The notes beneath the pieces are model-generated. The model had not been told where the DNA came from. It ran no database searches and worked only from the letters and a program-made list of their open reading frames with translations. A stretch of DNA of 64,000 nucleotides from Streptomyces sp. NBC_00457 (GTDB taxonomy: Bacteria; Actinomycetota; Actinomycetes; Streptomycetales; Streptomycetaceae): positions 7,192,001 to 7,256,000 of the forward strand of contig NZ_CP107905.1 in NCBI RefSeq assembly GCF_036014015.1. The letters run 5' to 3'. Positions 38,094-59,768 of this stretch are shown here, in pieces (positions within the stretch are counted from its first letter, which is position 1; the number at the start of each line of letters is the position of its first letter). Both the position numbers and the translations under genes were made by a program.

Positions 38094-38603
38094 ATGTCTC
38101 ACGCTCAATTACCCGGCTCTCCCCCAACCGCTGAGCGCTACCGGGCTCGCCTGCTCCGCCACGCGTACCGGCTCACCTCCGGAGACCGGCACCGTGCCGA
38201 GGACATCGTGCAGGAGACGATGTTGCGGGCCTGGCTGGCAGCCGCCGACCTCGACCGTTACGACGAGGACCGCCGGATCGCCTGGCTCTACCGCGTCGCC
38301 CGCAATCTGGCGGTCGATGCCCGCCGACGCGACCGGGCCGTCCCGGTCGGCGTGATCCCGGACGACATGGTGCACCGGCCGGACAGCGCAGGCGACCTGG
38401 CCGACAGCGTCGCCGACCGTCAGATCGTCCGGCTGGCCCTGGCGGGACTGTCGCCCGAGCATCGCGAGGTGCTGTTCCACATCCACGTGCGCGACCACAC
38501 CCGGGCGCAGGCCGCGCGGACCATCGGGGTCCCGCAGGGCACCGTCAAGTCGCGCAACCACTATGCCCTGTTGGCGCTACGAGACCAGATCCAGGCGGCA
38601 TGA
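38094..38603 (+). CDS. ECF-type sigma-70 family sigma factor
   Basis: A 169-residue sigma factor. ATG 38094 follows GGAG at eight bases, and in-frame upstream starts would add sequence without family similarity. Region 2 spans about residues 20-85 with RAEDIVQETMLRAWLAAADL and AWLYRVARNLAVDARRR. Region 4 is VRLALAGLSPEHREVLFHIH and AARTIGVPQGTVKSRNHYAL. The gene overlaps the following membrane protein gene by four bases and stands at the head of the secretion locus, so it is the likely dedicated regulator of these genes. No classical anti-sigma (zinc-motif) protein is adjacent. The membrane protein behind it may substitute. Confidence 0.92.
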   Translation: MSHAQLPGSPPTAERYRARLLRHAYRLTSGDRHRAEDIVQETMLRAWLAAADLDRYDEDRRIAWLYRVARNLAVDARRRDRAVPVGVIPDDMVHRPDSAGDLADSVADRQIVRLALAGLSPEHREVLFHIHVRDHTRAQAARTIGVPQGTVKSRNHYALLALRDQIQAA

Positions 38604-39823
38604 GGAACACCGACCCCTTCGTCTTCTTCCGGCAGCACAGCGACACCATCTACCGGGTGCTCGGCATCATGGGGGCGCTGCTGCTGGTCTACCTGCTACT
38701 GCGCGTGTGGGCGATGCGCTGGGGCGGCTGGCGCGCGGCCTGGGCGCGGCTGCGCCGTGAAGTGGCCGTCACGCGGTACGCGTTCACCGCGCCCGTGCGG
38801 GCCTGGTACCGCCACCGGAGCAGTCTGCGGCTGCTCGTACGGCAGTTGGGCGCCCCCGCGACCTGGCGGGACGCGGAACGAGCCCTGGCCGCGGCCCGGT
38901 CGGCCGCCGCGCCGGCCCGGCCGTACGCCGCGCTGGTGGCCTCCGACTCGGTCGCCGTGCTCCTCGCCGGGACCGACCTCCCGCGGCCCGACCCCGACGG
39001 GGCGTGGTGGACGGAGCCGGACCAGCCGGAGCGATGGCTCGTGGCCCGCGCGGACCTGCCCTCCGTGACACCGGAGGCGGCCGACGTCCGCCCGATCATC
39101 GTCGCCGTCGGTGAGGCGGACCGGTCGGTGGCCTTCCTCGACCTGGCCGTCGGCCCGCCCGTGCTCTCCGTCACCGGGCACGACCGGGCGGCCACGGCCC
39201 TGGTCCAGGTGGTCGCCGCGCAGCTCGACGTACGGCTGCCGAGCCCGCTGGTCGTCGTCGCCGAGGGTGTGCACCGGGACTACGCGGGCCCCCCGGTGCG
39301 GTCCGCGTACCGGACCGCCCGGGAGACTCCGCCCCGGCTGGGTATCGCGCCCGTGCTGATCGCGGCTGAACTGCCGGACCCGCTGCCGCCGGAGTTCGCC
39401 GCGCCGCCCGGGGACGACCCCACAGTCCGGGCCGTGGTCCTGGGCCCCGGCCGGGCCTACGTCCGCTCGCTGCTGACCGACCGGCACGGCAGGGTGGCCG
39501 TCGCCGGGACCCCGCTGCTGGCCCGCTGCGGCCCGCTGGGCCGCGCCGTGGCCAAGGTGCTGCCCTCGATCCCGCCCGTCCTGCCGCCCGCCCCGTCCGC
39601 CGAAGCCTCGACCGGACTCTCCGGCCGCCACGCGCGCGACCTGTTCGAAGAAGAAGACCAAGGCGCGGTGGAGGCGCCGAAGGTGTCCCGCAGCACGCCC
39701 GACGAGTCCGCCACCTCCCTGCACACGACCGGCGAGGCCCCACTCCCCGCCGCCTCCCGCACGGCAGCCCCCCGCCCGAAACCCACCACCCCGGCCCCCG
39801 GCACCACGTCCACGCACAGCTGA
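38600..39823 (+). CDS. Membrane-anchored hypothetical protein of the T7SS locus
   Basis: A 407-residue protein. One clear membrane segment is near the N-terminus (YRVLGIMGALLLVYLLLRVW, residues about 18-38), followed by a basic juxtamembrane helix. A domain of about 200 residues (SVAVLLAGTDLPRPDPDG through PVLSVTGHDRAATALVQVVA) suggests an alpha/beta fold related to the inactive ATPase-like domains of secretion accessory proteins. A Pro/Ser/Thr-rich tail follows. I do not recognise a named family. It is coupled to the sigma gene by ATGA overlap and precedes the EccC ATPase gene. It could be an anti-sigma factor or a structural partner of EccC, both by inference. The end of the gene is part of a tandem repeat. 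Confidence 0.75.
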   Translation: MRNTDPFVFFRQHSDTIYRVLGIMGALLLVYLLLRVWAMRWGGWRAAWARLRREVAVTRYAFTAPVRAWYRHRSSLRLLVRQLGAPATWRDAERALAAARSAAAPARPYAALVASDSVAVLLAGTDLPRPDPDGAWWTEPDQPERWLVARADLPSVTPEAADVRPIIVAVGEADRSVAFLDLAVGPPVLSVTGHDRAATALVQVVAAQLDVRLPSPLVVVAEGVHRDYAGPPVRSAYRTARETPPRLGIAPVLIAAELPDPLPPEFAAPPGDDPTVRAVVLGPGRAYVRSLLTDRHGRVAVAGTPLLARCGPLGRAVAKVLPSIPPVLPPAPSAEASTGLSGRHARDLFEEEDQGAVEAPKVSRSTPDESATSLHTTGEAPLPAASRTAAPRPKPTTPAPGTTSTHS

Positions 39824-39965
39824 CCCCGCCACCCGCTCGGCCGGCCCCCGCCCGGAGCCGGCCCCGGCCCCGGCATCTCGTCCACGCACAGTTGACCCCG
39901 TCCGCTCTGCCGGCCTCCGCCCGGAGCCGGCCCCCCGGCACCACGTCCACGCAAGCTGACCCCTC
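39796..39965 (+). repeat. Three imperfect tandem repeats across a gene end
   Basis: A unit of roughly 65-70 bases recurs three times. Each ends in a variant of CCACGTCCACGCACAGCTGA (39807-39826, a changed copy near 39869-39897, and one near 39945-39961). The segment GCCCGGAGCCGGCCCC occurs in the second and third. The first copy holds the stop codon of the membrane protein gene, and the rest fills the 162-base gap to the eccC start. Confidence 0.65.
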
Positions 39966-39985
39966 GCGCACCGGTTGGACCCACG

Positions 39986-42900
39986 TTGAACCTCATCCTC
40001 ACCACCGCCGACCCGGCCGGGCGCCGGGTGGACCATCTGTTGGATCTGCCCGAGGGCGCCACGGTCGGCGACCTCGGTGCCGCTCTGGAGGCCGGGCCGC
40101 TGTATCTGGGCGACCGGCTGCTCGGCCCCGATCTGCCCATCGGTGCCAGCGGCATCCGTGAGGGGGTCGTGGTCGGCCTGGGCGCCCCCGTGCCGGCCCG
40201 CACCGCCGCCCGCGCCTGGGAACCGCCGTCCTGTGACCCGGAGTTGGTGGAGATCCGGCATGTGAGCGGGCCCGGTGCCGGGCGGTCCTGGCGGCTGGGG
40301 CCCGGCAGTCACGAAGCCGGCACGGACCGGGGCTGCGCCCTGCGGCTGGACGGCGGGGGCGCGCCCGAGCAGGGCGTGTGGATCACCGTGGGCACGGACG
40401 GCACGGTGACCTACCGGCTGCCCGGCGACGCCGACCAGGACCGCTGCGGGCTGCGCAGCCTGACCCCGCCGCCGCCCGTCGACCCGGAGACCGGGACCCC
40501 GCTGACCGCCGAGGAACCGGCGGGCCCGCAGGACGGCGGCCCCGGCGGGCACACCCCGCAGCCCGCCCGGCCCGGCCCGGACGGTCTGCCGCAACAGCCC
40601 CCGCCACCCCCGGTCGGCTGGCTTCCGCCGCCGGACGACGGCTCGCAGGCCTGGCCCGCCTACGCCGACCTGTCGCTCGGTGACCATCTGCTGCGGCTGA
40701 GCCCGCTGTTCGACCCGGACGCGGCCGTGAACCCCTCGGCCGACGGCCTGGCCATCGAGTACAACCGGCCGCCGCGCATCGCCCCGCACCTGGACAGCGA
40801 GCAGATCCGGATGCAGGGTCCGCCCGGCGAACGCGGCTCACGGCCGTTCCCTGTGCTGATGATGCTGATGCCGCTGGTCATGGGTCTCGTCCTGATGAGC
40901 CTGTTCCGCTCCTTCTACTTCATCATCTTCATCTTCTTCACGCCGATGATGGCGGTCAGCAACTGGATCATGGGCCGCCGTACCGGGCGCAAGCAGCAGG
41001 AGGAGGCGCTGCGCATCTACCGGCTGCGCCGCGCCTCCCTGGAGCTGGAGATGCGCGACGCGACCGTGGCGGAACGGCAGTTGCGCAACATCACCTTCCC
41101 CGACCCGGCCACCGTCCTGCTCACCGCCACCGGCCCCGGCAGCCTGCTGTGGCAGCGCCGCCGCCGCGACCCCGACCACCTCACCCTGAGGCTCGGCACG
41201 GTCACCCGCCCGTCCCTCAAGCGCATCGACGACCAGGCCCGCGAGTCCAACCACCGCCAGGTGCACTGGCGCCTGGCCGACGTGCCGTTCGGCGTCGAAC
41301 TGGCCGACTTCGGCGTCGTGGGCCTGTCCGGTGCCGGCGAGACCCCTCGTACGGTGGCCTGCTGGGCCGTCGCGCAGGCCGCGGTCCTGCACAGTCCCCG
41401 GGACCTGCGGATCGTCGTCCTCACCGACGACGCGCACGCGGACGCCTGGAACTGGGTGCGCTGGCTGCCACACCTGCGGCCCGACCGCCGCGGCTCGGTC
41501 ATCGCGCTCGGCAACGACCCGGAGAGCACGGCCCACCGCGTCAGCGAACTGATCGCCGACATCCAGGCGAGGACGTCCGCCGCCGGCTCCGCGCTGGGCC
41601 ACACCCTGCTGCGCGAACCGGATGTGCTGGTCGTCCTCGACGGTGCCCGTCGGCTGCGGGACGTGCCCGGCGTCGTCCAGCTGCTGACCGGGGGACCCGG
41701 TGTGCGGATCTTCAGTCTGTGCGTGGACGAACGCGAACGGCTGCTGCCCGAGGAGTGCACCGCCGTCATCACGACGGAGGGCAACCGGCTGACCGTACGG
41801 GCGTCCGGGGTGCCCTCCGTGGAGGACATCCGGGCCGACCTGGTCGGCGCCGACTGGTGCGAGGAGGTCGCCCGCGCTCTCGCGCCCGTGCGGGACGTCA
41901 CGGTCGACAGCGACTCCGGGCTGCCCTCCGACGTACGACTGCTGCCGCTGCTCGGCCAGGAACCGCCCGACCCGGCCGCGATAGTGGCGAGCTGGGCCCG
42001 TCGGCCCGCCTCCACCGCGTTCACGCTCGGCGCCGGATACGAGGGCGAGCTCCGCCTCGACCTGGTCAGGGACGGGCCGCACGGGCTGATCGGCGGCACC
42101 ACCGGCTCCGGCAAGTCCGAGCTGCTGCAGACCATGATCGCCTCACTGGCCGCCGTCAACCGGCCCGACGAACTGGCCTTCGTACTGGTCGACTACAAGG
42201 GCGGCAGCGCCTTCCGCGAGTGCGCCGAACTCCCGCACACCCTCGGCATGATCACCGACCTGGACGGTCATCTGGTGCAGCGGGCCCTGGCCTCGCTCGA
42301 CGCCGAACTGCGCCGCCGCGAACGCGTGCTGGCCGACGTCGAGGCCAAGGACCATCCCGAGTACCGGGCCAAACGGGCCCGCGACCCGAAGCTGCCCGCG
42401 CTGCCCCGCCTGCTCCTGGTCATCGACGAATTCGCCACCCTCGTACGGGAGTTGCCCGAGTTCGTGCCGGGCCTGATCAGCCTCGCCCAGCGCGGCCGCT
42501 CGCTCGGCCTGCACCTCGTCCTGGCCACCCAGCGGCCCGGTGGCTCGGTCAGCAACGAGATCAAGGCCAACACCAACCTCCGGATCGCCCTGCGGGTGAC
42601 CGACCGCTCCGAGAGCCAGGACATCATCAACGCCCCGGAAGCGGCCAGCATCTCGCCCTCCACCCCGGGCCGTGCCCTCATCCGGCGCGGCGCCGGCGCC
42701 CCCACCCCGTTCCAGACGGCCTGGGTCGGCGCCGAGCGCGCCGGCGCCGCCACGCCCGAATCGGTGACGCCCTCCCGTCCGGTCCGAGGGGTCGAGCTGA
42801 CCTGGAACCGGCTGGGCCGCCCCGCCGACCTGGCCGCGGAGGACGAGCACGAAACCTTCGAGTACCGCACCGGCGGCGAGGAACCCGTCACCGACCTGAG

Positions 42901-44557
42901 CGCCCTGGTCGAGGCCGTCGGCCGGGCCGCCGAACTCCTCGACGACTACAAGCCGCAGCGCAGCCCCTGGCTGCCCCCGCTGGCCGAGACCGTCCCCATG
43001 GAATCCCTGCCGCCCTGCCCGCCGCCCGAACCCGGTGGGCTGCCGCTGGTGCCGTACGCCCTCATGGACGTCCCGCAGCTCCAGCAACAACGGCTCGGCA
43101 CGATCGACTTCGCGAGCTTCGGCCACCTCTACGTCATCGGCTCGCCCCGCTCCGGGCGCACCCAGGTCCTACGGACCGTCGCGGGCTCCGCCGCCCTCGT
43201 CATCCCCAGCTCCGACCTGCACATCTACGGCATCGACGCAGCCGGCGGCGGTCTCGCCGCCCTGGAGTCCCTGCCGCACTGCGGAGCGGTCGTCTCGCGG
43301 CACGACACGGAACGCCTGGAGCGGCTGATCTCCCGCCTGACCGCGGAGTTGACGGCCCGTCAGCGTCTGATCTCGCAGCACGGCGCCCCCGGCATCGGCG
43401 AACTGCGCGCCAAACTCCCCAAAGACCGCCGTCCGGCCCGACTGCTGCTGCTCATCGACGGCTGGGACGCGCTCAGCGCGATGCTCGACGACTACGACGG
43501 CGGTCGGCTGTACTCCGAGGTCGTACGGCTGCTGAGGGAGGGCGCTGCGGCCGGCATCCACGTCATCGCCACCTCCGAGCGCATCCTGCTGGGCGGCCGC
43601 CTCGCCGCCCACAACGACAGCCGGTTCCTGCTCAAGCAGGCCGACCTCAGCGACTACAACATCGCCGGCATGGGCCGTGGCAAGGTTCCCGCGCACATCC
43701 CGCCCGGCCGCGGCTGGCACGCCCCCAGCGGCGTCGAGGCCCAGATCGCCCTGCTGCCCGCCGAGGACGGCGCCGACCAGGGCGAGGCGCTGGCCGAGAT
43801 CGGCCGTCGCACCACCGCGCGCGACTCCGCGATCCCGGTCGTCCGCCGTCCCTTCCGCATCGAGGAACTCCCTTCCCTGATCGGCTTCCAGGAGGCGGTG
43901 GACCGCGTCCCGGAGTCCCGGCGCCGTCCGCTGTGGGCCCTGGTGGGCATCGGCGGCGACACCGCCGAGCCCCTCGGCTTCGACTTCGCGGCCGGCGGCG
44001 GCTCCTTCGTGGTCGCCGGGCCCCCGCGCTCGGGACGTAGCACGACGCTCGCCTCCATGTGCGTGTCCCTGCTGATGGGCGGCACGGCACTCGTCGTCCT
44101 GGCGCCGCGCGACTCGCAGCTGCGGCAGCTCGCCGCGCACGATCTCGCCCAGGTCATCACCGACCACGACCCCTCGGCGGACGCGGTCACCCAGGCCCTG
44201 CGCGCGGTCTCCGGGAAGCCGGTGGTCGTCGTCGTGGACGACGCGGACCTGCTCCTGGCGTGCGGGGCCGACAAGGTGCTCCGGCAGGTCGCCACTTCGG
44301 GGCGCGACCGACAGCAGGGCCTGCTGCTCGCCGGACTGCCCGAGTCGATGAGTTCCCTCGGCTGGGTCGGTATGGCCCGCCGTTCGCGGCGCGGCATCCT
44401 GCTCGGGCCGAAGTCGATCGGGGAGGGCGACCTCATCGGGGTGCGGATCTCCTCCGAGCAGGTCCGCACACCGCTGGCCCCCGGCCGCGGCTGGACGGCG
44501 AGCGAGGCGGGCGCCCCGATCGCGGTCCAGGTGCCGCTCACGGTGCTGGACGGCTGA
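39986..44557 (+). CDS. eccC: Type VII secretion ATPase EccC/EssC-like
   Basis: A 1,523-residue FtsK/SpoIIIE-family motor beginning at a TTG (MNLILTTADPAGRRVDHLLD). Order: an N-terminal ubiquitin-like/FHA-like region (1-140), as in EssC; a Pro-rich linker; two membrane helices (about 289-330, LMPLVMGLVLMSLFRSFYFI and FIFFTPMMAVSNWIMG); a DUF domain; then three ATPase domains. D1 has a full Walker A GTTGSGKSE (about residues 702-710) and Walker B LLLVIDEFA. D2 (GSPRSGRTQ, about 1053) and D3 (GPPRSGRST, about 1345) replace the Walker lysine by arginine. EccC selects Esx-type substrates and drives export. No eccB, eccD, eccE or mycosin gene lies nearby. The gene converges with the esx-like genes across a strong terminator. 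Confidence 0.93.
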   Translation: MNLILTTADPAGRRVDHLLDLPEGATVGDLGAALEAGPLYLGDRLLGPDLPIGASGIREGVVVGLGAPVPARTAARAWEPPSCDPELVEIRHVSGPGAGRSWRLGPGSHEAGTDRGCALRLDGGGAPEQGVWITVGTDGTVTYRLPGDADQDRCGLRSLTPPPPVDPETGTPLTAEEPAGPQDGGPGGHTPQPARPGPDGLPQQPPPPPVGWLPPPDDGSQAWPAYADLSLGDHLLRLSPLFDPDAAVNPSADGLAIEYNRPPRIAPHLDSEQIRMQGPPGERGSRPFPVLMMLMPLVMGLVLMSLFRSFYFIIFIFFTPMMAVSNWIMGRRTGRKQQEEALRIYRLRRASLELEMRDATVAERQLRNITFPDPATVLLTATGPGSLLWQRRRRDPDHLTLRLGTVTRPSLKRIDDQARESNHRQVHWRLADVPFGVELADFGVVGLSGAGETPRTVACWAVAQAAVLHSPRDLRIVVLTDDAHADAWNWVRWLPHLRPDRRGSVIALGNDPESTAHRVSELIADIQARTSAAGSALGHTLLREPDVLVVLDGARRLRDVPGVVQLLTGGPGVRIFSLCVDERERLLPEECTAVITTEGNRLTVRASGVPSVEDIRADLVGADWCEEVARALAPVRDVTVDSDSGLPSDVRLLPLLGQEPPDPAAIVASWARRPASTAFTLGAGYEGELRLDLVRDGPHGLIGGTTGSGKSELLQTMIASLAAVNRPDELAFVLVDYKGGSAFRECAELPHTLGMITDLDGHLVQRALASLDAELRRRERVLADVEAKDHPEYRAKRARDPKLPALPRLLLVIDEFATLVRELPEFVPGLISLAQRGRSLGLHLVLATQRPGGSVSNEIKANTNLRIALRVTDRSESQDIINAPEAASISPSTPGRALIRRGAGAPTPFQTAWVGAERAGAATPESVTPSRPVRGVELTWNRLGRPADLAAEDEHETFEYRTGGEEPVTDLSALVEAVGRAAELLDDYKPQRSPWLPPLAETVPMESLPPCPPPEPGGLPLVPYALMDVPQLQQQRLGTIDFASFGHLYVIGSPRSGRTQVLRTVAGSAALVIPSSDLHIYGIDAAGGGLAALESLPHCGAVVSRHDTERLERLISRLTAELTARQRLISQHGAPGIGELRAKLPKDRRPARLLLLIDGWDALSAMLDDYDGGRLYSEVVRLLREGAAAGIHVIATSERILLGGRLAAHNDSRFLLKQADLSDYNIAGMGRGKVPAHIPPGRGWHAPSGVEAQIALLPAEDGADQGEALAEIGRRTTARDSAIPVVRRPFRIEELPSLIGFQEAVDRVPESRRRPLWALVGIGGDTAEPLGFDFAAGGGSFVVAGPPRSGRSTTLASMCVSLLMGGTALVVLAPRDSQLRQLAAHDLAQVITDHDPSADAVTQALRAVSGKPVVVVVDDADLLLACGADKVLRQVATSGRDRQQGLLLAGLPESMSSLGWVGMARRSRRGILLGPKSIGEGDLIGVRISSEQVRTPLAPGRGWTASEAGAPIAVQVPLTVLDG

Positions 44558-44631: not shown

Positions 44632-44961
44632 TCAGGCGTTCGACTCGCTCTGGGCCTTGATGACCTCGTTGGCGATGTCCTGGTCGGACTGGGCGATCGA
44701 CTCGCCGATGTCCTGGAAGCTCTTGCCGTACTCCCCGATGTTGCTGGCCGAGGACTTCATCTGCTTGCTGAAGGCGTCGTACGCGTCCTTGAGCGCGGGG
44801 CTGGCCTTCTCGAAGACCAGGCCGTCCTGGAGCAGACCGCTCACCGTGGTCTCCAGGTCGGTCAGTTCGTTGGAGATGTCCGTGAGCTTGTTGCCCATGG
44901 CCGTGGCGGCCCGGGCGATCTCGTCGTAATCGAAAAGGACATCGGGACTTCCTGCTGCCAT
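44632..44961 (-). CDS. Esx/WXG100-like small protein, first copy
   Basis: A 109-residue helical protein with no signal peptide, the size and helix-turn-helix pattern of WXG100 secretion substrates. ATG 44961 follows AGGAGA. It lacks a W-x-G at the turn and instead has EKASPALKDAYDAF. A sibling encoded immediately upstream shares SPAL...Y..F and a C-terminal D-x-D-I-A-x-x-V (SDQDIANEV). Esx proteins are exported as dimers by EccC-type ATPases, and these two may form a heterodimer. Order on this strand: the 312-residue protein, sibling, then this gene. Confidence 0.8.
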   Translation of the reverse strand: MAAGSPDVLFDYDEIARAATAMGNKLTDISNELTDLETTVSGLLQDGLVFEKASPALKDAYDAFSKQMKSSASNIGEYGKSFQDIGESIAQSDQDIANEVIKAQSESNA

Positions 44962-52400: not shown

Positions 52401-55272
52401 GCTGCTCGGCCACTCCGGCACCGAGGTGTTCGAGCGCCGCCCGCTGCCGTTCGGCAACGGCGGCTCCATCGACGCCTTCCACTCCGCCGCCGGGGTCGGC
52501 GCGTTCGGCCGCTTCAACCAGCGCGGTGTGTGGACCGAGTTCGACGGGGCCGGCGCGGCGGTCCGCTACGGCACCCGGCACTGGGGCGAGAGCGGCCGCA
52601 GCTACTTCGACGTCACCACGGTCCGGGGCGTCGACACCCGCGTCCGCCATTTCCAGCAGAACCCGGACGGCGGCCATGTGCTGGCGAGCCTGGACCGTTC
52701 GGTCTGGACGCAGAGCGCGGGCCGCGGCACCTGGCACCGCTTCGACGCGGACTACAACCACCTCGCGGAGGGTGCCAGGAAGTGGGGTCCGGGTCGGGGC
52801 TGGACGGACACCATGGCCCACCCGAAGACCGGCGTGGACACCGTGGTCCACGAGAAGTTCGGCCGCTTCACCCCGAGTCCGCACGACGTACGCCGCTACT
52901 TCCAGGTGGAGATGGGCGCGGACGGCATCCCCAAGCGGGACTGGATGTCCCACTCGCCGCACGGCAAGGAGAACGGCCGTGGCGTGACGCTGAGCAACGG
53001 CGACTTCCTGGAGACCCGCCGGATCGCCGAGCAGCGCCCGCCGTTCTTCGCACGCTGGGCGATGAGCGGGGACTATCGGGCCACCAGCCTGGCCGACGCG
53101 AGTTGGCTGCGCTTCGACGGCAAGTACCAGATCCACGAGTGGAAGCTCACGCCCGCGTCCGGCGGACTGCCGGAGCGCGGTGTGCGGTTCGTCAGCATGA
53201 GCGGTGTCACGACGGACATCGCGAGGAACGGACAGGTCGTCCGGGTGACCGGCAAGACGCCGAGCGGCAACGAACTCACCGTCGGCGACGTCCCGCTGCC
53301 GAACGGTGTCAACCGGCAGGCCAACTACCTGCCCTGGTCCGAGGGCGCGGGCAAGCTCGACGGCCACCGCACGTACGTGGCCGCCGACTTCCACGTGCCG
53401 CCGGGCCACCAGCGAGGCGACATCCTCTTCCAGGACCGCTTCACCCCCAACCGGGCCGACGGCGACTGGTACTCGCCCGACCCGAACAAGCAGTGGGAGG
53501 TCGCCCGCACCGGCCTCAAGGACGGCACGGTGATCGAGTACCGGCCCGCCCCCGCCGTCCGCCCGGACGGCCAGGCCGGCAACGGCGACATCGCCTTCCG
53601 GCAGAACATCCACGCGGGCACCGGCGACTGGACGAAGTACGACCCGCACGGCATGGTCGTCGGCCGCAAGGACACCTGGCCCGACCCGGCCGGCGGCGGC
53701 AACAACACCATCACGATCACCGCCACGGGCCCGGCGGGCGCCAAGACCCTGGAATGGCACGGCCCGAACGGCACCCACGGCATCCGGCAGACGCAGCACC
53801 AGCGGGGCATGGAGACCTGGGCCTGGGACAAGGAGTCGTTCCAGGACTTCGACGGGGGAAGGCTGATCCGCGAGCACCGGCTGCTCGGGGACGGCACCAC
53901 CGTCGACGCCTGGCGTGTCAGCCGCGACCCGAACACCGGCGCCGAGACCTGGCAGTGGAACAAGATCGACCGGCACGGCAACGTCATGGACTTCGGCGGC
54001 GGCGCCCCGCACCGGGTGCGGAACTGGATCGACTCGAACGGCAACGTGCTCCCCGGCTGGCGGCCCGACGCCCGCTGGCAGGACCAGGTGGCCACTCCGG
54101 ACCCGAACAACCCGGCCACCATCAACACCGTGACCGTGCAGGAGATCCCGGCCCGCCCGGCCACCGGACCGATCCACAGCTGGGCCACCGACGCGCCGTT
54201 CCGGGTGCGCGAGTACGTGCCGGACGTCGGCGGCACCTTCAACTCCAACGTGTGGAAGGAGTTCGACAACGGGATCGACATCCGCCGCAAGACCGATCTC
54301 GGCGACGGCACCTTCCTGGAGAGCGAGGAGTGGCACAAGCAGTGGCGGCGCTACGGCGGCCCGACCGGCACGACACTCCTGGAGCAGCGCGCCATCTCCG
54401 GATACATCTGGAGCAGCGACACCTTCGGCCGGACCACGCTCATCGGCCGTGAGACCAACTTCATCGGCGCGCTGGGCGAGTACCGCGGCTTCAGCCGGAT
54501 GTGGCGCGAGCCCAACCGCTGGGACTTCGGCCGCAGCGTCGGCGGCGAGTCCGTGTACACCCCGTTCGCCGGGAAGGCCGCCCAGATGCTGGCCGTCGAG
54601 ATGGGCCAGGAGTGGCTGCTCGACTTCAGCATGAACCTGGTCGTCTACGGCATCGTCGCGGCCGCCACCGGCAGCGAGTTCGGCTGGAACGACGTCGCCA
54701 AGGCGGCCTTCGGCGCGACCGTCAGCGCGGGCGTCAAGGGCACCCTCTCGGCCGGCCACCTCGCCACCTTCCGGGGCGGTCCCTGGAAGACCGGCCTCGG
54801 CCAGATGGACATGGGCCAGCCCTACTCCCGGCGCCCCAACGACGACAGCTGGCAGAGCGAGTTCGCGGGCAACGAGAAGGTCACCCGCTGGCGCGCGGGC
54901 ACGTACGACTTCGGCCTCGGCATCTTCGGCGGTGCCCTCTCCGGCTTCATCGGCGGCAGCGCGAGCGCGGCGATCTTCGGCGTGAAGGACAAGGACGGCA
55001 ACACCGTCCACCTCTACGGCACCGACGCGCTGCTGGTGGGCGCGGCCGGCGCGGCGGCCGGCGTGATCGGCGGCGTCACCACCGGCCTCGCCAAGACGAT
55101 CATCACCCAGAACATCGCCGGCCGCTGGTACCACCGCCAGGGCTTCTTCGACATCTTCGTGGCGGCGGGCATGGGCAAGCTGGCCGACAAGATCTTCGCC
55201 AACATGTACTTGACGGGCGCGATCCGCGACTCGGTCGTCGGGGACGTCTCAAACAGCGGGGGCGGCGCATGA
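46480..55272 (+). CDS. Giant 2,930-residue T7SS-linked repeat protein
   Basis: ATG 46480 follows GGAGG at eight bases. Residues 1-130 are a T7SS signal-type helical domain (PADWSALGLGSDPTPGD, then a long helical hairpin). Hydrophobic helices follow at about 165-205 (WLALILIIPAIIVGGPLALF). Residues about 230-560 are Gly/Leu-rich. Residues about 560-890 repeat V-D-V-P or V-N-V-P motifs, including five near-identical 16-residue units (728-807). After a Pro-rich linker, 193-194-residue beta-rich units begin at about 1203, 1396 and 1590. A long region of Tyr/Trp/Asp-rich repeats leads to a Gly/Ala-rich helical end (about 2700-2910, GALSGFIGGSASAAIFG, GAAGAAAGVIGGVTTG). I see no nuclease, protease or peptidoglycan-hydrolase motif. 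It may be a surface fibre or polymorphic-toxin-like effector. Its stop overlaps the next gene by four bases. Confidence 0.85.
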   Translation: MARPADWSALGLGSDPTPGDAARIDEIITSQGELVTLADTIDTGLTEIKNTTDGAFVGETADALRKVIDGDLRNYVSTFRQAHQDAQAALRTYVGVMRAQQERADAALTAAAGLAEDDDEGREGHKSTAEDAGSILSDAAETAASALTTAAESIASPIDECEEFWKALGWLALILIIPAIIVGGPLALFAIGLNVALLIKTAVDFSQGKASVTELVLSILGVIAPTTKGINVGAVFKGLKGAGVSAFQGGKTLFLGGPNAFGLLGRLTLGIDDTFRATGVWLNGLRGINGMKFTPGLAFMPGLKGFTLGGVGLGKGFSVLPAATELTVINLLGAKSFFAVRSVISGLGGIGRLGSSLGHSMLNGVRGLNGLRFFLPVAADEMGNGLLFALRIGVIDRGVFGMYRYGAFAGGQFLGASSKISGAAASGLTLLRPGADLGGLSHVNLTGFTPTPAGGLGSGLTKLPPLDLSPSIGNVNLTGGLSGLGGSFNAPVPAIGARITDLPAVSGLSGVHIPPLGGLGGVNVPQLSGLGNMNMPQLGQISQVGAVGTGAFRGADIAVGDIAAVGAARIDVPSLSSVASGPTAVRVDMPSVDARVTDIPSAHGVGSVQTPSVGQVDVPAVAQVNVPTTGLGQVNVPTVTMGASPDVAAVGAHQVNVPSPGALANGPTTTRLDAPGMAARITDIPSVNGVGSTLGRVDVPSVGTMNAPSVGRVDVPSVTSVNVNLSTVGRVDVPAAGGVGVAPVGRVDVPAAGGVGVAPVGRVDVPAAGGVGVAPVGRVDVPAAGGVGVAPVGRVDVPAAGGVGVAPVGRVDVAATGTANVSSVGRVDVPAAGSVNVPSVGRVDLPVTGNAGGPTGVASDVPAGAAHVDAPPASALGRVDVPVSGTPAVNPAPANALTAPPAPGGVQHTPTGGLDGSPASHVPPPGTGGPAKNGGLGLPGNDSLLADLPQLGRVDLAAFRDQHRTIRVFMQNDQALDLQHTFTNIPGLPHVRVEVTPTATQPRVDPPTPGVRATYETPQGGGNQFLRVEQDLGDGSVRRTDYHLSAALNHQQIGTQVVRGIELQTLPSQAPPPHITTAGPSGTNTAPAHAVNVPGLNGVRVDITPGSRPNIVNPNGVQGLRAEQTGQGNVVRIEHVNGGETRHWDFDVDTHGTRLVGAEHQITLRGGHFGGTTVGIDVLPGGTGAIRHLDAAGAVQPGGITHVGGEYRVPGPGNRTVVYDANFAHAYDELALSGGALNGGVLRIDANGTVGVVGRPGVNVTVLPGNGGFHVGEANGNWLRVYGADGGYVHRVLPVPGGNMVRFPEGTRATHDLIDAGGTPVPGARVEPQTTGFRIENGVGQPHLVVNDLGVQTHTARPLNGGAANGEFVHTPVAGQPGGIIRTDAAGAPQGGITHVGGEYRVPGPGNRTVVYDANFTHAYDELPLTGGALNGGVLRIDPNGTVGVTGQPGVNVTVLPGNGGFHVGEANGNWLRVYGADGGYVHRVLPVPGGNMVRSPEGTRATHDLIDAGGNPVPVARVETQPVGFRIENGPNQPHLVVNDLGVQTHTARPLNGGAANGEFVHTPVAGRPGGIIRTDVAGAPQPGGITHVGGEYRVPGANNRTVTYDANYQHMYDELPLNGGALNGGVLRIDPAGTVRLNGHPTATAVPQPGDGNGFRVLRGNDHVAVDVRGNHTADVRELSGGTAPHANGEFVHTPVNGPAVLKQGDGSAIPNSHVTVRADGSFLVEQPTALRVHGAADGRVDIDTVRLQDAAGVPVGQNVRVHPGGALELVDNNLAEIPNIKVTARPGGGHRVEQADGGFRLYGNNGRLDHSVTDTGQGGVFRVDDGNGTHLYDTVRLGDGIGTRFLRTDLNQLRVLDAHLTPTPGNVTREPNGQYRVDGVGASHQGEFKRYDADGRLDFQRINVIHQGRIKPDQHIEVTYPNPNAAPAGAKPTWQRIHLDAAGNPVPPAGNRPWYDGGTVDLKGIDHGRVRLLGHSGTEVFERRPLPFGNGGSIDAFHSAAGVGAFGRFNQRGVWTEFDGAGAAVRYGTRHWGESGRSYFDVTTVRGVDTRVRHFQQNPDGGHVLASLDRSVWTQSAGRGTWHRFDADYNHLAEGARKWGPGRGWTDTMAHPKTGVDTVVHEKFGRFTPSPHDVRRYFQVEMGADGIPKRDWMSHSPHGKENGRGVTLSNGDFLETRRIAEQRPPFFARWAMSGDYRATSLADASWLRFDGKYQIHEWKLTPASGGLPERGVRFVSMSGVTTDIARNGQVVRVTGKTPSGNELTVGDVPLPNGVNRQANYLPWSEGAGKLDGHRTYVAADFHVPPGHQRGDILFQDRFTPNRADGDWYSPDPNKQWEVARTGLKDGTVIEYRPAPAVRPDGQAGNGDIAFRQNIHAGTGDWTKYDPHGMVVGRKDTWPDPAGGGNNTITITATGPAGAKTLEWHGPNGTHGIRQTQHQRGMETWAWDKESFQDFDGGRLIREHRLLGDGTTVDAWRVSRDPNTGAETWQWNKIDRHGNVMDFGGGAPHRVRNWIDSNGNVLPGWRPDARWQDQVATPDPNNPATINTVTVQEIPARPATGPIHSWATDAPFRVREYVPDVGGTFNSNVWKEFDNGIDIRRKTDLGDGTFLESEEWHKQWRRYGGPTGTTLLEQRAISGYIWSSDTFGRTTLIGRETNFIGALGEYRGFSRMWREPNRWDFGRSVGGESVYTPFAGKAAQMLAVEMGQEWLLDFSMNLVVYGIVAAATGSEFGWNDVAKAAFGATVSAGVKGTLSAGHLATFRGGPWKTGLGQMDMGQPYSRRPNDDSWQSEFAGNEKVTRWRAGTYDFGLGIFGGALSGFIGGSASAAIFGVKDKDGNTVHLYGTDALLVGAAGAAAGVIGGVTTGLAKTIITQNIAGRWYHRQGFFDIFVAAGMGKLADKIFANMYLTGAIRDSVVGDVSNSGGGA
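48661..48948 (+). repeat. 48-base tandem array inside the giant gene
   Basis: Units start at 48661, 48709, 48757, 48805 and 48853, each 48 bases (16 codons, VGRVDVPAAGGVGVAP). They differ only at a GGG/GGT glycine and a GCG/GCC alanine codon. A degenerate sixth unit starts at 48901 and more distant ones at 48949 and 48997. Codon choice in the array (GGT, GTG) differs from flanking units (GGC, GTC), indicating recent expansion or homogenisation. Confidence 0.95.
50086..51300 (+). repeat. About 580-base tandem repeats inside the giant gene
   Basis: Units begin at 50086, 50665 and 51247 with the residues VGGEYRVPG. The first two are about 193-194 residues long and share runs such as NGNWLRVYGADGGYVHR and HLVVNDLGVQTHTARPLNG, nearly identical even at DNA level (compare 50281-50400 with 50860-50980). 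The third diverges after about 50 residues. Confidence 0.9.
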
Positions 55273-57878
55273 CGGACCGGACCATCAGGGTCGCGCCCAA
55301 GGGCCGGGGCACGCACCGCAGCATCGCCTCGGCGCTCGCCGCCGCGCCCGCGGGCGCGGTCGTCACCGTCGCGCCCGGCGAGTACGAGGAGACCCTGCGG
55401 CTCGACCGGCGTGTCACGCTGGAGCCGGAGTACGGCCCCGGCTCGGTCGTCCTGCGGGCCCCCGCGGGCATCGCCCTCACCGTCACCGCCCCGGAGTGCC
55501 TGCTGACCGGCCTGGTGCTGCGCGGCGCCGACCCCGTGGAGGCGCTGATCCGGGTCGAGGACGCCGCCGGGCTCAGCCTGGAGGACTGCCGGCTCGGCCA
55601 CGGCCGCATCGAGGTGCTCGGCTCCCCGGACGGCTCCGGAGCCGTCGCCAACGCCGCCCTGGACCTGGACAGCGACCTCGCCGCCGAGCTGGCGGACCCG
55701 CTGGGAGGCGGAGTCCTGGTGCTGCGCGGGACCCGGCTCAGCGGCGCCCAGCACACCGCGCTGCACCTCGCCGGGGACGCACGCGCCCGCGTCGAGGACA
55801 CGGTGATCGAGTCGGTCGACGGCATCGGCGCCGTACTGTCCGGCACGGCCGTGCTGCTCGCCGAGCGGCTGCGGATCCAGGCGAACTCCGGATCCGCGGT
55901 GCGGGTGCGCGGCGGTTCACGGCTGCTGGTGCGCGACGCGCGCCTGGTGGGCGCCGGACGCAACGGCGTCCTCGTCCAGGACACCGCCGAGGCGCTGCTG
56001 GACGGGTGCCGGATCGAGGGCGTGGCCCGCTCCGGTGTCCAGGTCTCGCACGAGGCCCGGGCCGAGCTGACCGACTGCCGGATCACCGGGGCGGGCGGCC
56101 ACGGCCTGGAGGCCGGCGACGCGTCCCGGCTGACGGTACGCGGCTGCCATGTGCTGGACCCGGCGGGCCACGGACTGCTCGCGGCCGGGGGTACGACGGT
56201 GACGCTGACCGACTCGCTGTTCGCCCGCACCGGCGGCTCGGCCCTGCACCTGGACGAGCGGGCGGTCGCGGTGGTGACCGGCTGCCGGGTGTCCGGCAGC
56301 GGGGAGCACGCCCTGGTGGCCGCCGGGACCACGCAGGCCGAGGTCACCCGGACCACGCTGGCCGGGGCGCGGGCGTGCGGAGCGCAGGTGGACGGCGAGG
56401 CACAGGTGGTGCTGGCCGCCGTACGCGTGGAGGACGGCGAGACGGGCGTACGGGTGCGCTCCGGCCGTCAGTCGCAGCTCCTGGACTGCTCGGTGACCGG
56501 CCAGCGGCGGGGCGGTGTCGAGCTGGCGGCCGACGCGGTCGCCGTGCTGCGCGGCACCCGGATCGCCGAGGTGGGCGGCGCGGGCGTGACCGTCGACACC
56601 GGGGCCCGGCTGGTCATGGAGGGCGGCTCAGTCTCCGGGTCGGGGGCCGGCGGCCTGGTCCTGGGGCGGAAGGCACAGGCCGAGGTGCGGGGCGTACGGA
56701 TCGAGGGCACCGGCAAGAACGGCATCCTCGTCGGCGAGGAGTCCGGCGGCACCTTCGACCACTGCGATGTGTCGGCCACCGCGTTCCCCGCGCTGCACAT
56801 GGCCCGGGGCGCCACCCCGCGATTCCGGGGCTGCCGGGTCTTCGACTGCGGTCACGACGCGCAACTCGCCGAGGGCGCCGAGCCGGAGTTCGAGGACTGC
56901 GCCGCGATCCGGGTCGGCACGGCCCTGCTCCCGACGCTCTCGGACCTGCCGACGGCCCCCGCCACACCCCGCACACCCGCGGGAACCCCGGCCACCCCCG
57001 CCGGGCCGGCGACCGGCACCCCCGGCCTGGCCCAGCACGGCGAGCCCGAACCCGAGCCGGAGACCCTGGAGGACCTGCTCGCCGAGCTGAACGAACTCGT
57101 CGGCCTGGACGGCGTCAAACGCGACGTCGGCGGCATGGTCAAGCTGATGCAGACCGTACGGCTGCGCGAGCAGGCGGGCCTGCCCGCCCCGCCGCTCAGC
57201 CGCCACCTGGTCTTCGCCGGCAACCCCGGCACCGGCAAGACGACCGTCGCCCGCCTCTACGGCCGCCTCCTCAAGGCCCTCGGCCTGCTCGCCCGCGGCC
57301 ACCTGGTCGAGGTCGACCGCAGCGCCCTCGTCGGCGAGTACGTCGGCCACACCGGCCCGAAGACCACCGAGGCCTTCCACCGCGCCCGGGGCGGCGTCCT
57401 CTTCATCGACGAGGCGTACGCCCTGGTCCCGGCCGGGTCCGCGAACGACTTCGGCGGCGAGGCGATCGCCACCCTGGTCAAGCTGATGGAGGACCACCGG
57501 GACGAGGTCGTCGTCATCGCCGCCGGATACCCGGACGACATGGACCGCTTCATCGGCTCCAACCCCGGCCTGTCCTCCCGCTTCACCCGCAGCCTGGTCT
57601 TCGCCGACTACTCCACGGCCGAACTGGTCAGCATCGTCGAGCACCACGCCCAGCGCCACCGGTACGAACTCAGCACGGCCGCCCGCAAGGCGCTGGCCGA
57701 GCACGTCGAACTGATCCCGCGCAACGACCGGTTCGGCAACGGCCGCACGGCCCGCCAGCTCTTCCAGACCATGACGGAACGCCAGGCCATGCGGGTCGCC
57801 GAGCTGACCGCGCCCGAGGCGGCACAACTCGTACTGCTGGACGAGCAGGACCTGCCCCAACCCACCACACCCGCCTGA
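55269..57878 (+). CDS. Beta-helix / EccA-type AAA+ ATPase fusion
   Basis: An 869-residue protein. ATG 55269 overlaps the giant gene's stop by four bases. Residues about 1-560 form a right-handed parallel beta-helix: APKGRGTHRSIASALAAAPA (the pectin-lyase-like N-cap) and many 22-24-residue turns such as ARAELTDCRITGAGGHGLEA. A Pro/Thr linker follows, then a CbxX/CfqX AAA+ domain (about 595-860) with Walker A FAGNPGTGKTTVARL (near residue 650), Walker B LFIDEAYALVP and sensor/arginine-finger regions. In mycobacterial ESX loci EccA has a TPR N-terminus and this AAA+ module, and here the TPR is replaced by a beta-helix. It may act as a chaperone or unfoldase for the adjacent giant protein. Confidence 0.9.
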   Translation: MTDRTIRVAPKGRGTHRSIASALAAAPAGAVVTVAPGEYEETLRLDRRVTLEPEYGPGSVVLRAPAGIALTVTAPECLLTGLVLRGADPVEALIRVEDAAGLSLEDCRLGHGRIEVLGSPDGSGAVANAALDLDSDLAAELADPLGGGVLVLRGTRLSGAQHTALHLAGDARARVEDTVIESVDGIGAVLSGTAVLLAERLRIQANSGSAVRVRGGSRLLVRDARLVGAGRNGVLVQDTAEALLDGCRIEGVARSGVQVSHEARAELTDCRITGAGGHGLEAGDASRLTVRGCHVLDPAGHGLLAAGGTTVTLTDSLFARTGGSALHLDERAVAVVTGCRVSGSGEHALVAAGTTQAEVTRTTLAGARACGAQVDGEAQVVLAAVRVEDGETGVRVRSGRQSQLLDCSVTGQRRGGVELAADAVAVLRGTRIAEVGGAGVTVDTGARLVMEGGSVSGSGAGGLVLGRKAQAEVRGVRIEGTGKNGILVGEESGGTFDHCDVSATAFPALHMARGATPRFRGCRVFDCGHDAQLAEGAEPEFEDCAAIRVGTALLPTLSDLPTAPATPRTPAGTPATPAGPATGTPGLAQHGEPEPEPETLEDLLAELNELVGLDGVKRDVGGMVKLMQTVRLREQAGLPAPPLSRHLVFAGNPGTGKTTVARLYGRLLKALGLLARGHLVEVDRSALVGEYVGHTGPKTTEAFHRARGGVLFIDEAYALVPAGSANDFGGEAIATLVKLMEDHRDEVVVIAAGYPDDMDRFIGSNPGLSSRFTRSLVFADYSTAELVSIVEHHAQRHRYELSTAARKALAEHVELIPRNDRFGNGRTARQLFQTMTERQAMRVAELTAPEAAQLVLLDEQDLPQPTTPA

Positions 57879-57931
57879 CCGACCCCCGTCCGTCCCACGG
57901 CCCCCGATCCCGACCACCCGGAGCAACCCCC

Positions 57932-58768
57932 ATGCCCCCGAAGCCCTCGAAATCCCCGCAGCGCTTCTCGGAGACCTTCGCCGGCCGACCCGCCCGCTCG
58001 CCCCGCGGTCTCGCGCCCGGGCGACGGGTCTGGATCAGCCTGGGCTGGGCCGGTGCCGTGGCCGCCGTCTGCGCCCTCGCCATCCCGCTGGTAGGCAGCG
58101 GGGCCCCTGCCTCGGACAACGGCACCGAGGTGACCGCGGCGAGCGGCAACTCGGCCACGTCGCCCGCTCCGTCGCCCACGCCCTCCCCCGAGTCCCCGCG
58201 CCCCTCCAGGACCCCGGCGAAGACCACGAAGGAGACCGGGATCCCGGACCTCGCTCAGGCCCCGAACCACCCGGGCACCGTAGCCACCGTCACGGCCACC
58301 GCGAGTAGCAAGCCACCCACCGCCAAGCAGAAGCCCGCCCCCGAGACCAGGCGCACCCCCGAATCCACCACCCCCGCCCAGGACTTCTCCCGCCCCGTCG
58401 GCCAGATCTCCGGCCACTACGACGGTTTCGTCGGCAAGTGCGTCCAACTCGTCGGCAGCGCCCTCCAGTTGTACGGCTGCGACGGCGGCTCCGACCAACA
58501 GTGGCAGTTCGCCGCCGACGGCACCCTCCGGAAGGACGGCCGCTGTCTCTCCCTGGCCGGCCGCTCCACCAGCGACGGCACCCGGGTCGTCATGGCCTCC
58601 TGCGACTCGACCACGGTCACCCAGTGGCGCTACAGCGCCGCCTACGACATCGTCAACGTCGCCGCCGACAAGTGCCTCGACGTCGCCAACGCCGCCACCA
58701 CCGACGGCTCTCCGCTCCAGATCGCCTGGTGCTCGGGCAACGCGGCCCAGAAGTGGACGGTCCCCTGA
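57932..58768 (+). CDS. Membrane-anchored ricin-type lectin protein
   Basis: A 278-residue protein, with ATG 57932 after GGAG at eight bases. N-terminal module (residues 1-60): MPPKPSKSPQRFSETFAGRP, a basic segment, then one membrane helix (WISLGWAGAVAAVCALAIPL). A Ser/Pro/Thr-rich stalk spans about 65-150. The C-terminal 130 residues form a ricin-type beta-trefoil (CBM13) with QxW repeats: GSDQQWQF, VTQWRYS and AAQKWTVP, and three Cys pairs (KCVQLVGS, KCLDVANA). It should display a sugar-binding head outside the membrane. Its N-terminal module is almost the same as that of the next gene. Confidence 0.87.
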   Translation: MPPKPSKSPQRFSETFAGRPARSPRGLAPGRRVWISLGWAGAVAAVCALAIPLVGSGAPASDNGTEVTAASGNSATSPAPSPTPSPESPRPSRTPAKTTKETGIPDLAQAPNHPGTVATVTATASSKPPTAKQKPAPETRRTPESTTPAQDFSRPVGQISGHYDGFVGKCVQLVGSALQLYGCDGGSDQQWQFAADGTLRKDGRCLSLAGRSTSDGTRVVMASCDSTTVTQWRYSAAYDIVNVAADKCLDVANAATTDGSPLQIAWCSGNAAQKWTVP

Positions 58769-58838
58769 GCGGGTCCGGCGCAGGCCGTACCAGAAGACGA
58801 CGCCCGACTCACCGTCCACGATTCCCGGAGTAACCCTG

Positions 58839-59768
58839 ATGCCCACACCGACACCGAAGCCCTCGAAGTCACCGAACGGCTTCTCGGACACCTTCGCCCG
58901 CAAACCCGCCCGTTCCCCCCGTGGTCTCGTGCCCGGGCGTCGGGTCTGGCTCAGCCTGGGCTGGGGCGGTGCCCTGACGGCCGTCCTCGCCGTCGGCATC
59001 CCGCTCCTCGGGAGTGACGTCTTCACCTCGGACGACAGCGACAAAGTGGTCACCGCGGAGACCGTCCCCACCTCACCCGCTCCCTCGCGCACCCCTTCGC
59101 CCACACCCACGCCGATGCCCACCAGAACCAAGTCCACCCCCACCGCCAAGGCCGTGGTCCCGCCCGCTCCGCCCGTCGTGACACCGGAGACCTCGTCCGC
59201 GGCACCGGTCGCGTCGCCGCCGGCCGCCGGTACGGGGTCCGGGGGCGACGTGACGAAGGAGGCGGCCAAGCCCCGGGTGAGGACCGCCGCGGTCGCCGTG
59301 CAGGAGCTGGCCACACGGAATCCGGGCCGGCACATCTGCTACCGGGCCTATGTGGAGAACCTCGGCTGGCAGGCCGCGGTGTGCGACGGCGCCACCGCCG
59401 GCACGGTGGGCCAGGGCAGGCCGATCAAGGCACTGAACATCGCCGTGTCCGGCACCAACGGCACAGCCGCCACCGCATTCGTCCACAACCCCGACTCGAC
59501 CGACGGCAAGGGGCACTACCCCACAGGGTGGAAGGGCGCGGTCGACGGCATCGACAACTACATCGGCAGCAGCAAGAACAGCGCCCCGGACATGCTCGGT
59601 TTCGCCATCAACGTCGGCGGAAGCACGAGCGTCATCTGCCAGACCTCGAACGTCCACAAGGAGGGCTGGCACGGCATGGGCTGCGACGAACCCGGCGGCG
59701 AGAACCTGATCTTCGGCGGAACCCTCAACAACGACTTGTGGCTGGAAGCAGTCAAATTCACGGTGTGA
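58839..59768 (+). CDS. Membrane-anchored ChW-repeat-like protein
   Basis: A 309-residue protein, with ATG 58839 after CGGAG. The N-terminal module PKPSKSPNGFSDTFARKPAR, then SPRGLVPGRRVWLSLGWGGA, is a paralogue of the previous gene's, including the membrane helix. A Thr/Pro-rich stalk follows. The C-terminal 170 residues contain clostridial hydrophobic-with-conserved-Trp type repeats: ICYRAYVENLGWQAAVCDGA with TVGQGRPIKALNIAVSG, then HYPTGWKGAVDG, then TSNVHKEGWHGMGCDEPGGE ending LWLEAVKF. ChW repeats occur in extracellular binding proteins. The two neighbours therefore carry different heads on one anchor. A palindromic repeat follows the stop by three bases. Confidence 0.82.
   Translation: MPTPTPKPSKSPNGFSDTFARKPARSPRGLVPGRRVWLSLGWGGALTAVLAVGIPLLGSDVFTSDDSDKVVTAETVPTSPAPSRTPSPTPTPMPTRTKSTPTAKAVVPPAPPVVTPETSSAAPVASPPAAGTGSGGDVTKEAAKPRVRTAAVAVQELATRNPGRHICYRAYVENLGWQAAVCDGATAGTVGQGRPIKALNIAVSGTNGTAATAFVHNPDSTDGKGHYPTGWKGAVDGIDNYIGSSKNSAPDMLGFAINVGGSTSVICQTSNVHKEGWHGMGCDEPGGENLIFGGTLNNDLWLEAVKFTV

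What the first reader, a model, noticed from the sequence alone, without database searches (positions are those of the whole stretch)
38094..59768. A self-contained, unusual type VII secretion locus
One region encodes an ECF sigma factor, a membrane protein, an EccC/EssC-type motor, three Esx-like or substrate-like proteins, a 2,930-residue repeat protein with a T7SS signal domain, a beta-helix-AAA+ fusion and two anchored binding proteins. EccB, EccD, EccE, EsaA/EssA/EssB and mycosin genes are absent. Either EccC here borrows a pore from a separate ESX locus, or this is a reduced system dedicated to building a surface structure from the giant protein. The gene set and tight coupling (several four-base overlaps) suggest one functional unit.
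Basis: partly seen in the sequence, partly recalled or inferred. Interest (0 to 1): 0.78.

Follow-up and report, generated by a model that had tools for sequence, protein, structure and literature searches.

The report
Stand-alone secretion system for giant proteins
A conserved gene cluster of Streptomyces and its relatives looks like a separate, so far unclassified kind of type VII secretion system devoted to one giant modular protein, which in some relatives carries an actin-attacking domain, suggesting a tool used against other cells rather than a building block of the cell surface.

Summary
In detail: sigma factor, membrane protein, EccC/EssC-type motor, three Esx-like genes, a 2,930-aa protein, a beta-helix-AAA+ protein and two binding proteins, without EccB/D/E, mycosin or EssB. 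A full ESX core-gene set lies 4 Mb away in the same genome. The order recurs in Streptomyces, Embleya, Kitasatospora, Kribbella, Planotetraspora and Sphaerisporangium: 31 of 44 loci reach the giant gene; the other 13 run off their contigs. Of 41 genomes with the locus, the same six lack EccB and EccD (and EccE), so it can exist without an ESX pore. The motor has an N-terminal ubiquitin-like domain. The membrane protein resembles a free-standing EccC 'DUF' pseudo-ATPase (suggestive fold match, no sequence proof). The giant has conserved ends and a variable middle; in five Kribbella genomes the middle holds an actin cross-linking domain, in one Actinacidiphila three metallopeptidase-type HExxH signatures. 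A mirrored promoter-like pair lies between esx and giant genes in the window and some relatives. Best reading: an unclassified T7SS subtype with a giant modular effector. Secretion, pore and target are inferred; the window's own giant has no recognised cargo.

The parts
38094..38603 (+). ECF-type sigma factor (ORF opens at 38007)
   Evidence: Sigma70_r2 and r4 Pfam matches; homologue upstream of the membrane gene in 43 of 44 related loci, the exception L037 starting inside the membrane gene
38600..39823 (+). 407-aa membrane protein: N-terminal TM helix, long stalk helix, degenerate FtsK/EccC-DUF-like domain without Walker A
39986..44557 (+). EccC/EssC-type motor: ubiquitin-like domain (1-67), FHA-like region (about 85-155, not confirmed), two TM helices, DUF, three FtsK-type ATPase domains
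   Evidence: FtsK_SpoIIIE 180.6 bits; TIGR03928 529 bits, cut-off 778; PDB sequence matches to T. curvata EccC, YukB and EccC5
39986..40186 (+). ubiquitin-like N-terminal domain of the motor
   Evidence: weak sequence matches to ubiquitin-like proteins; model; fold matches
44632..44961 (-). Esx/Lap-like small helical protein 1 (109 aa)
   Evidence: WXG100 25.2 bits, below cut-off; TIGR03930 and TIGR04197 weak
44995..45306 (-). Esx/Lap-like small helical protein 2 (103 aa)
   Evidence: NF035934 18 bits, cut-off 100; kept in place in many relatives
45330..46268 (-). 312-aa Esx3, partner- or substrate-like, GTG start, no known domain
   Evidence: homologue in 31 of 31 loci that reach the giant gene
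46311..46338 (-). promoter-like element TGAACC-N15-TGCGTGG facing the esx genes
   Evidence: 2 matches in the window, 0.01 expected; facing esx3 in 16 of 31 loci with a looser pattern
46362..46389 (+). mirror promoter-like element facing the giant gene
   Evidence: facing the giant in 13 of 31 loci
46480..55272 (+). 2,930-aa giant protein: T7SS_signal-like N-terminus, hydrophobic hairpin, variable middle, conserved C-terminal part with hydrophobic glycine-rich end
   Evidence: PF21725 below cut-off in the window, 25 of 29 relatives match at E <= 0.01; conservation profile; tail alignment
55269..57878 (+). right-handed beta-helix fused to a SpoVK/CbbX/EccA-type AAA+ ATPase (869 aa)
   Evidence: Beta_helix 152 bits, AAA 62.9; SpoVK 258, CbbX 233, EccA 226 bits, all below cut-offs; found behind the giant in 21 of 21 loci
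57932..58768 (+). RicinB-type lectin with one hydrophobic stretch near its N-terminus
   Evidence: RicinB_lectin_2 79 bits
58839..59768 (+). ChW-domain protein with one hydrophobic stretch near its N-terminus
   Evidence: ChW 45.8 bits

Best explanation
The cluster encodes a stand-alone type VII secretion subtype, separate from ESX, dedicated to one giant modular effector. Proposed mechanism: the ECF sigma factor fires a mirrored promoter pair and so makes the Esx-like partners and the giant together. The Esx-like proteins hold the giant's helical N-terminal signal domain and bring it to the EccC-type motor, which carries its own ubiquitin-like domain in place of a separate EsaB/YukD or the one in EccD. 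The 407-aa membrane protein, shaped like EccC's membrane-proximal DUF domain, assembles with the motor in place of EccB/D/E or EssB. The beta-helix-AAA+ protein remodels the giant for export, as EccA is thought to do in ESX (recalled). The lectin and ChW proteins grip a surface. The giant presents or delivers the cargo in its variable middle; its hydrophobic glycine-rich C-terminus may enter a membrane. Shown here: gene content, conservation, existence in genomes without EccB/D/E, domain architecture and cargo variation. Inferred: secretion itself, how the complex is built, sigma targets, promoter function, delivery and target.
For: Order g2-eccC / esx(-) / giant in 31 of 44 loci, the other 13 ended by their contigs; AAA+ gene behind the giant in 21 of 21. 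The same 6 of 41 genomes lack EccB and EccD; EccE in 0 of those six and 11 of 12 others tested, 8 of them above cut-off; EssB in 0 of 7. Cluster-type motors form one group, 33 rows, support 98/97, apart from the canonical EccC (long branches). Ub-like N-terminus. Fold of the membrane protein. T7SS_signal in 25 of 29 relatives. Modular giant: residues 1-300 aligned in 0.88-0.90 of 80 homologues, 701-800 in 0.05, 1901-2800 in 0.98-0.99. Actin cross-linking domain in 5 of 38 Kribbella-genus genomes, each time in frame with the giant's N-terminus and next to genes of this locus type. Three HExxH signatures with M6 and M57 scores above cut-off in an Actinacidiphila giant. Mirrored promoter-like motif.
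Confidence: 0.6

Rival explanations
1. The motor borrows the membrane pore (EccB/D/E) of the ESX locus elsewhere in the genome and only supplies substrate choice.
For: A full ESX core-gene set is in the same genome, and 35 of 41 locus-bearing genomes have EccB.
Against: Six genomes lack EccB, EccD and EccE, two of them with a whole locus; the motor is in a group apart from the canonical EccC.
Confidence: 0.12
2. The giant is a structural surface protein or fibre built by a reduced secretion system.
For: Long repeat-rich regions and a 48-bp repeat array in the gene, lectin and ChW neighbours; no recognised cargo domain in the window's own giant nor in 7 of 12 others scanned.
Against: Relatives carry an actin cross-linking domain or metallopeptidase-type signatures in the variable middle between conserved ends.
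Confidence: 0.2
3. The giant is an antibacterial polymorphic toxin like LXG or Rhs toxins of other T7SS.
For: The same type of N-terminal domain occurs on many ORFs of about 1,500 aa in some of these genomes; one homologue is named RHS.
Against: The C-terminus is conserved, not swapped, and in the window there is no room for an immunity gene between giant and AAA+ gene (4-bp overlap); the one certain cargo domain acts on actin (recalled for that family).
Confidence: 0.15
4. Not a secretion system: the FtsK-like motor and membrane protein serve another process and the giant is a cytoplasmic or otherwise exported protein.
For: No secretion has been shown, and the best fold rows of the membrane protein are FtsK.
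Against: The motor's best PDB sequence matches are T7SS motors; Esx-like genes and a T7SS_signal-like protein recur in the same place.
Confidence: 0.08

Closest known systems
T7SSb (Ess/Yuk) of Bacillota
   Same: EssC-type motor layout (extra N-terminal region before two TM helices, three ATPase domains); small Esx/Lap-like partners next to a large candidate substrate
   Different: EssB/YukC in 0 of 7 genomes tested; EssC model score below cut-off, and not discriminating: the canonical EccC of the same genome scores 544 against 530 bits on it; ubiquitin-like part fused to the motor instead of a separate EsaB/YukD
T7SSa (ESX) of Actinomycetota
   Same: EccC-type motor with DUF and three ATPase domains; a neighbour with an EccA-like AAA+ part; Esx-like genes
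   Different: No EccB, EccD, EccE or mycosin in the cluster; motor in a group apart from the canonical EccC; N-terminal beta-helix on the AAA+ protein (TPR in EccA is recalled); found in genomes without EccB/D/E
T7SSc-T7SSj variants (Garrett, Higginson and Palmer 2024, PMC11217815)
   Same: Variants that share the motor, WXG100 and usually a ubiquitin-like protein; T7SSd is the only one of them reported from Actinomycetota (abstract)
   Different: T7SSd has a kinase (TsdD), TsdH and TsdI and no ubiquitin-like protein; here no kinase, a ubiquitin-like domain fused to the motor, a pseudo-ATPase-like membrane protein and a giant substrate. The main text has no occurrence of 'Streptomyces'
Mobile motor-plus-WXG versions of T7SS noted by Zhang et al. 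2012 (PMC3482391, passages only)
   Same: T7SS-like sets reduced to an FtsK/HerA-type ATPase and WXG proteins
   Different: Noted in other lineages (such as proteobacteria and planctomycetes) with solo WXG domains; no giant substrate or membrane partner described in the passages seen
MARTX toxins (works-like comparison, recalled)
   Same: Conserved ends with a changeable middle that can hold an actin cross-linking domain
   Different: T7SS_signal-like N-terminus; Pfam found no RTX repeats or cysteine protease domain in P0153

Membership tests
EccC/EssC motor family | FtsK/SpoIIIE ATPase domains with two N-terminal TM helices and DUF | tested here: met
   FtsK_SpoIIIE 180.6 bits, 3 stretches; TM-DUF region profile matches YukB, EccC3 and EccC5; three P-loop-like motifs, two of them with GR in place of GK
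T7SSa (ESX) | EccB, EccD, EccE and mycosin encoded with the motor | tested here: not met
   None among the cluster genes; no EccB/EccD/EccE match in the 44 related stretches; EccB, EccD and EccE absent genome-wide in six holders. Mycosin was not searched genome-wide; mycosin-query matches in L016 and L069
T7SSb | EssB/YukC pseudokinase | tested here: not met
   PF10140 in 0 of 7 genomes given, control B. subtilis positive
T7SSb | EssC model at its curated cut-off | tested here: not met
   TIGR03928 529 bits, cut-off 778
T7SSd (Actinomycetota) | Ser/Thr kinase TsdD | tested here: not met
   No kinase family among Pfam matches of the ten cluster genes
T7SSd (Actinomycetota) | TsdH and TsdI | not tested
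   No model or sequence for these was searched
WXG100 | WXG100 profile at curated cut-off and W-x-G motif | tested here: not met
   Esx1 25.2 bits, cut-off 27.3; no WXG100 match listed for Esx2; no W-x-G in either (sequences)
PF21725 T7SS_signal | Profile score at curated cut-off | tested here: inconclusive
   19.9-23 bits, cut-off 27, in the window; 25 of 29 aligned N-termini match at E <= 0.01
EccA | TIGR03922 equivalog score | tested here: not met
   226 bits, cut-off 467; matched only over the AAA part
EccC DUF / FtsK fold (407-aa protein) | Shared fold | tested here: inconclusive
MARTX | RTX repeats and cysteine protease domain | tested here: not met
   Pfam on P0153 at E <= 0.01 found only ACD and T7SS_signal
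Ubiquitin-like fold (motor residues 1-67) | Beta-grasp fold | tested here: met

The most novel reading that the evidence does not exclude
A new T7SS subtype of Actinomycetota whose inner-membrane machine is just a ubiquitin-fused EccC plus a pseudo-ATPase copy of EccC's DUF domain, and which delivers giant effectors with exchangeable middles into eukaryotic cells such as amoebae or fungi: a Gram-positive functional counterpart of MARTX toxins.
Probability: 0.35. Interest if true: 0.9.

Novelty: new variant of a known kind. Interest (0 to 1): 0.77.

Why it matters
Which proteins form the type VII channel is unsettled (recalled), and the subtypes in Garrett et al. 2024 mostly add partner proteins of their own to the shared motor. 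A conserved cluster that persists where EccB, EccD, EccE and EssB are not found, with the ubiquitin-like part fused to the motor and one pseudo-ATPase-like partner, would give a small machine on which to test what the core really needs. A giant substrate with an actin cross-linking domain in some relatives would connect these actinobacteria to attack on, or defence against, eukaryotic cells through type VII secretion; three searches of the held papers listed nothing on such a link (listings only).

Tried and rejected
Profile-profile comparison of the 407-aa protein with six parts of the motor was not significant (best probability about 4), so the link rests on fold only. A PDB sequence search with its profile found nothing relevant. 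Some UniProt names call distant homologues 'EccE', but for three of these (P0070, P0078, P0085) no NCBIfam family, EccE included, was listed at E <= 0.1, so I do not call it EccE. I first took the higher EssC score of the motor as a sign of EssC kinship and dropped that: the canonical EccC of the same genome scores as high on the EssC model (544 against 530 bits).

The class survey reported 37 of 393 genomes (four candidates scored per genome), but 31 of these score 46 bits or less; I count the 6 above 100 bits and dropped the 31. Pfam scans of further giants mostly found no cargo domain. A tRNA-Asn call beside the cluster suggested a tRNA-borne island, but it lies inside a sialidase-like gene, and in 26 related loci scanned no tRNA-Asn was found. 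The N-terminal domain of the giant matched no solved structure convincingly by sequence. The FHA-like region of the motor was not confirmed: the fold rows were filled by the ubiquitin-like part.
Full report
What is there. The window is G000:C1:7192001-7256000 of a 10.8 Mb single-contig genome. Genes and domains of the cluster were confirmed: ECF sigma factor, 407-aa membrane protein, 1,523-aa EccC/EssC-type motor, three minus-strand Esx-like genes, a 2,930-aa giant, a beta-helix-AAA+ fusion, and RicinB-lectin and ChW proteins with one N-terminal hydrophobic stretch each (by sequence). Two four-base overlaps exist (38600-38603, 55269-55272). The esx genes face away from the giant gene, so this is not one operon.

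Conservation. Searching with an alignment of 23 sequences of the 407-aa family gave 44 loci. In 31 of 44 the order g2, eccC, minus-strand esx genes, giant was present; the other 13 end at their contigs before the giant. The sigma gene was found in 43 of 44, the exception being a locus that begins inside g2. Following the giant downstream in 21 loci, the beta-helix-AAA+ gene was found in 21 of 21 (cut by the stretch's end in one), and the conserved C-terminal domain of the giant in 20 of 21. In more distant loci, such as those of Kribbella and Sphaerisporangium, a lectin-type protein lies upstream of the sigma gene instead. In an even class survey the 407-aa protein scored above 100 bits in 6 of 393 genomes, so the cluster is patchy.

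Is it tied to ESX? The window's genome has EccD, mycosin, EccB and EccE above curated cut-offs at 3.24-3.30 Mb, with a canonical EccC. Among the 41 genomes behind the 44 loci, EccB was found in 35 and EccD in 35 (34 above cut-off). The same six lacked both: S. alkaliphilus, ST2-7A, YIM 98790, SID13031 and two Planotetraspora. EccE was tested in 18 of the 42 genomes at hand (these 41 and the window's own): 0 of the six, 11 of the 12 others, 8 of those above cut-off. EssB was in 0 of 7 genomes given (the six and the window's own). Two of the six (Planotetraspora thailandica and SID13031) hold the full locus on one contig. These are genomes for which the tool gave no completeness, but three models agreeing on the same six argues against chance gaps. 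Hence the cluster does not seem to need a T7SSa pore, at least there. Other EccC-like loci exist in several of these genomes, so a contribution from those is open.

The giant. Residues 1-300 align in 0.88-0.90 of 80 homologues, 701-800 in 0.05, and 1901-2800 in 0.98-0.99. The homologues, some of them partial, were collected with residues 2640-2915, so conservation there is by construction, but not at the N-terminus or at 1901-2640. PF21725 T7SS_signal matches 25 of 29 N-termini at E <= 0.01, the window's own below cut-off. In Kribbella P0153 an actin cross-linking domain (280 bits) sits at 1705-2051, between the conserved ends. A search of 38 genomes of the genus of Kribbella sp. ALI-6-A found the domain in 5, all in open frames of 3,060-5,246 aa. 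In all 5 it is in frame, without a stop, with the giant's N-terminus; four of these lie in contiguous sigma-g2-eccC-esx-giant loci, and the fifth follows the esx genes at a contig start and continues into the conserved C-terminus and the beta-helix-AAA+ gene. An Actinacidiphila giant of 6,288 aa has HExxH signatures at 2600, 3533 and 4458, with whole-protein scores above cut-off for M6 (35.1, cut-off 22) and M57 (26.8, cut-off 21), though no single stretch passes E 0.01 by itself. In all, 12 relatives or pieces were scanned: 2 with a domain above cut-off, 3 with weak matches, 7 without any effector-like match; the window's own giant has none. No immunity gene separates giant and AAA+ gene in the window. 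This is why I prefer an effector to a fibre.

Regulation. TGAACC-N13-22-TGCGTGG occurs twice in the 64-kb window (0.01 expected), as a mirror pair between esx3 and the giant. With a looser pattern, 13 of 31 loci have it facing the giant and 16 of 31 facing esx3; 14 of 31 have neither. It resembles ECF promoters (recalled), suggesting that the locus's own sigma factor drives both sides; not shown. One match of the strict pattern lies elsewhere, in L047.

What is known. Garrett et al. 2024 (PMC11217815; abstract, methods, the sections on identification, T7SSd/e, T7SSg, T7SSh/i and the discussion read, passages of others) define T7SSc-j beside T7SSa and b; T7SSd is the only one of the new types they report from Actinomycetota and has a kinase and no ubiquitin-like protein. 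The main text has no occurrence of 'Streptomyces'; its supplements were not read. Zhang et al. 2012 (PMC3482391, passages only) noted T7SS-delivered polymorphic toxins in actinobacteria and mobile motor-WXG systems elsewhere. Searches joining the actin cross-linking domain with type VII secretion or Kribbella, MARTX with type VII secretion and Actinobacteria, EssC with Streptomyces and EccC with Streptomyces listed no paper whose title or abstract start describes this cluster; only listings were seen.

Verdict. A real, conserved, patchy gene cluster that fits an unclassified T7SS subtype with a giant modular substrate. Existence without EccB/D/E, cargo variation and the ubiquitin-like fusion are the strong points; secretion, assembly and target remain to be shown.

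Noticed in passing
L077 6492-11817, L080 6981-12667, L079 7966-13551, L083 7111-12067: In four genomes another EccC-like motor with a small Esx-like gene sits beside what look like Tad pilus genes (by eye), recalling T7SSg/T7SSh of Bacillota (PMC11217815) but in Actinomycetota.
   Followed up: partly
L078 869-11381, L081 2041-11949: Smaller cousins of the cluster: a sigma factor gene, a 600-850 aa protein (like the giant's N-terminus at least in L078), an Esx-like gene and an EccC-like motor, without a match to the 407-aa protein.
   Followed up: partly
G000:C1:3243409-3290394: In the window's genome almost 50 kb lie between eccC and the esx/eccB genes of the ESX locus, including a 1,728-aa protein that looks like a T7SS substrate.
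   Followed up: no
window 36680-37858: A sialidase-like gene (BNR_2, 124 bits) lies directly upstream of the sigma gene; an ARAGORN tRNA-Asn call at 37363-37456 lies inside it and is probably false.
   Followed up: partly
G010, G011, G016, G017, G018, G021: These genomes have 16-26 matches to the giant's N-terminal domain, many in open frames of about 1,500 aa: probably a family of T7SS-type toxins.
   Followed up: no
P0153 residues about 1180-1290: A stretch that looks by eye like an ADP-ribosyltransferase precedes the actin cross-linking domain (recalled motif; no Pfam match).
   Followed up: no
L076 and L085 (G015:C233): The giant's open frame in Streptomyces sp. A108 is 8,574 aa, the longest seen here.
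   Followed up: no
window 48659-48914: A 48-bp tandem repeat (5.3 copies, 97% matches) in the giant gene.
   Followed up: no
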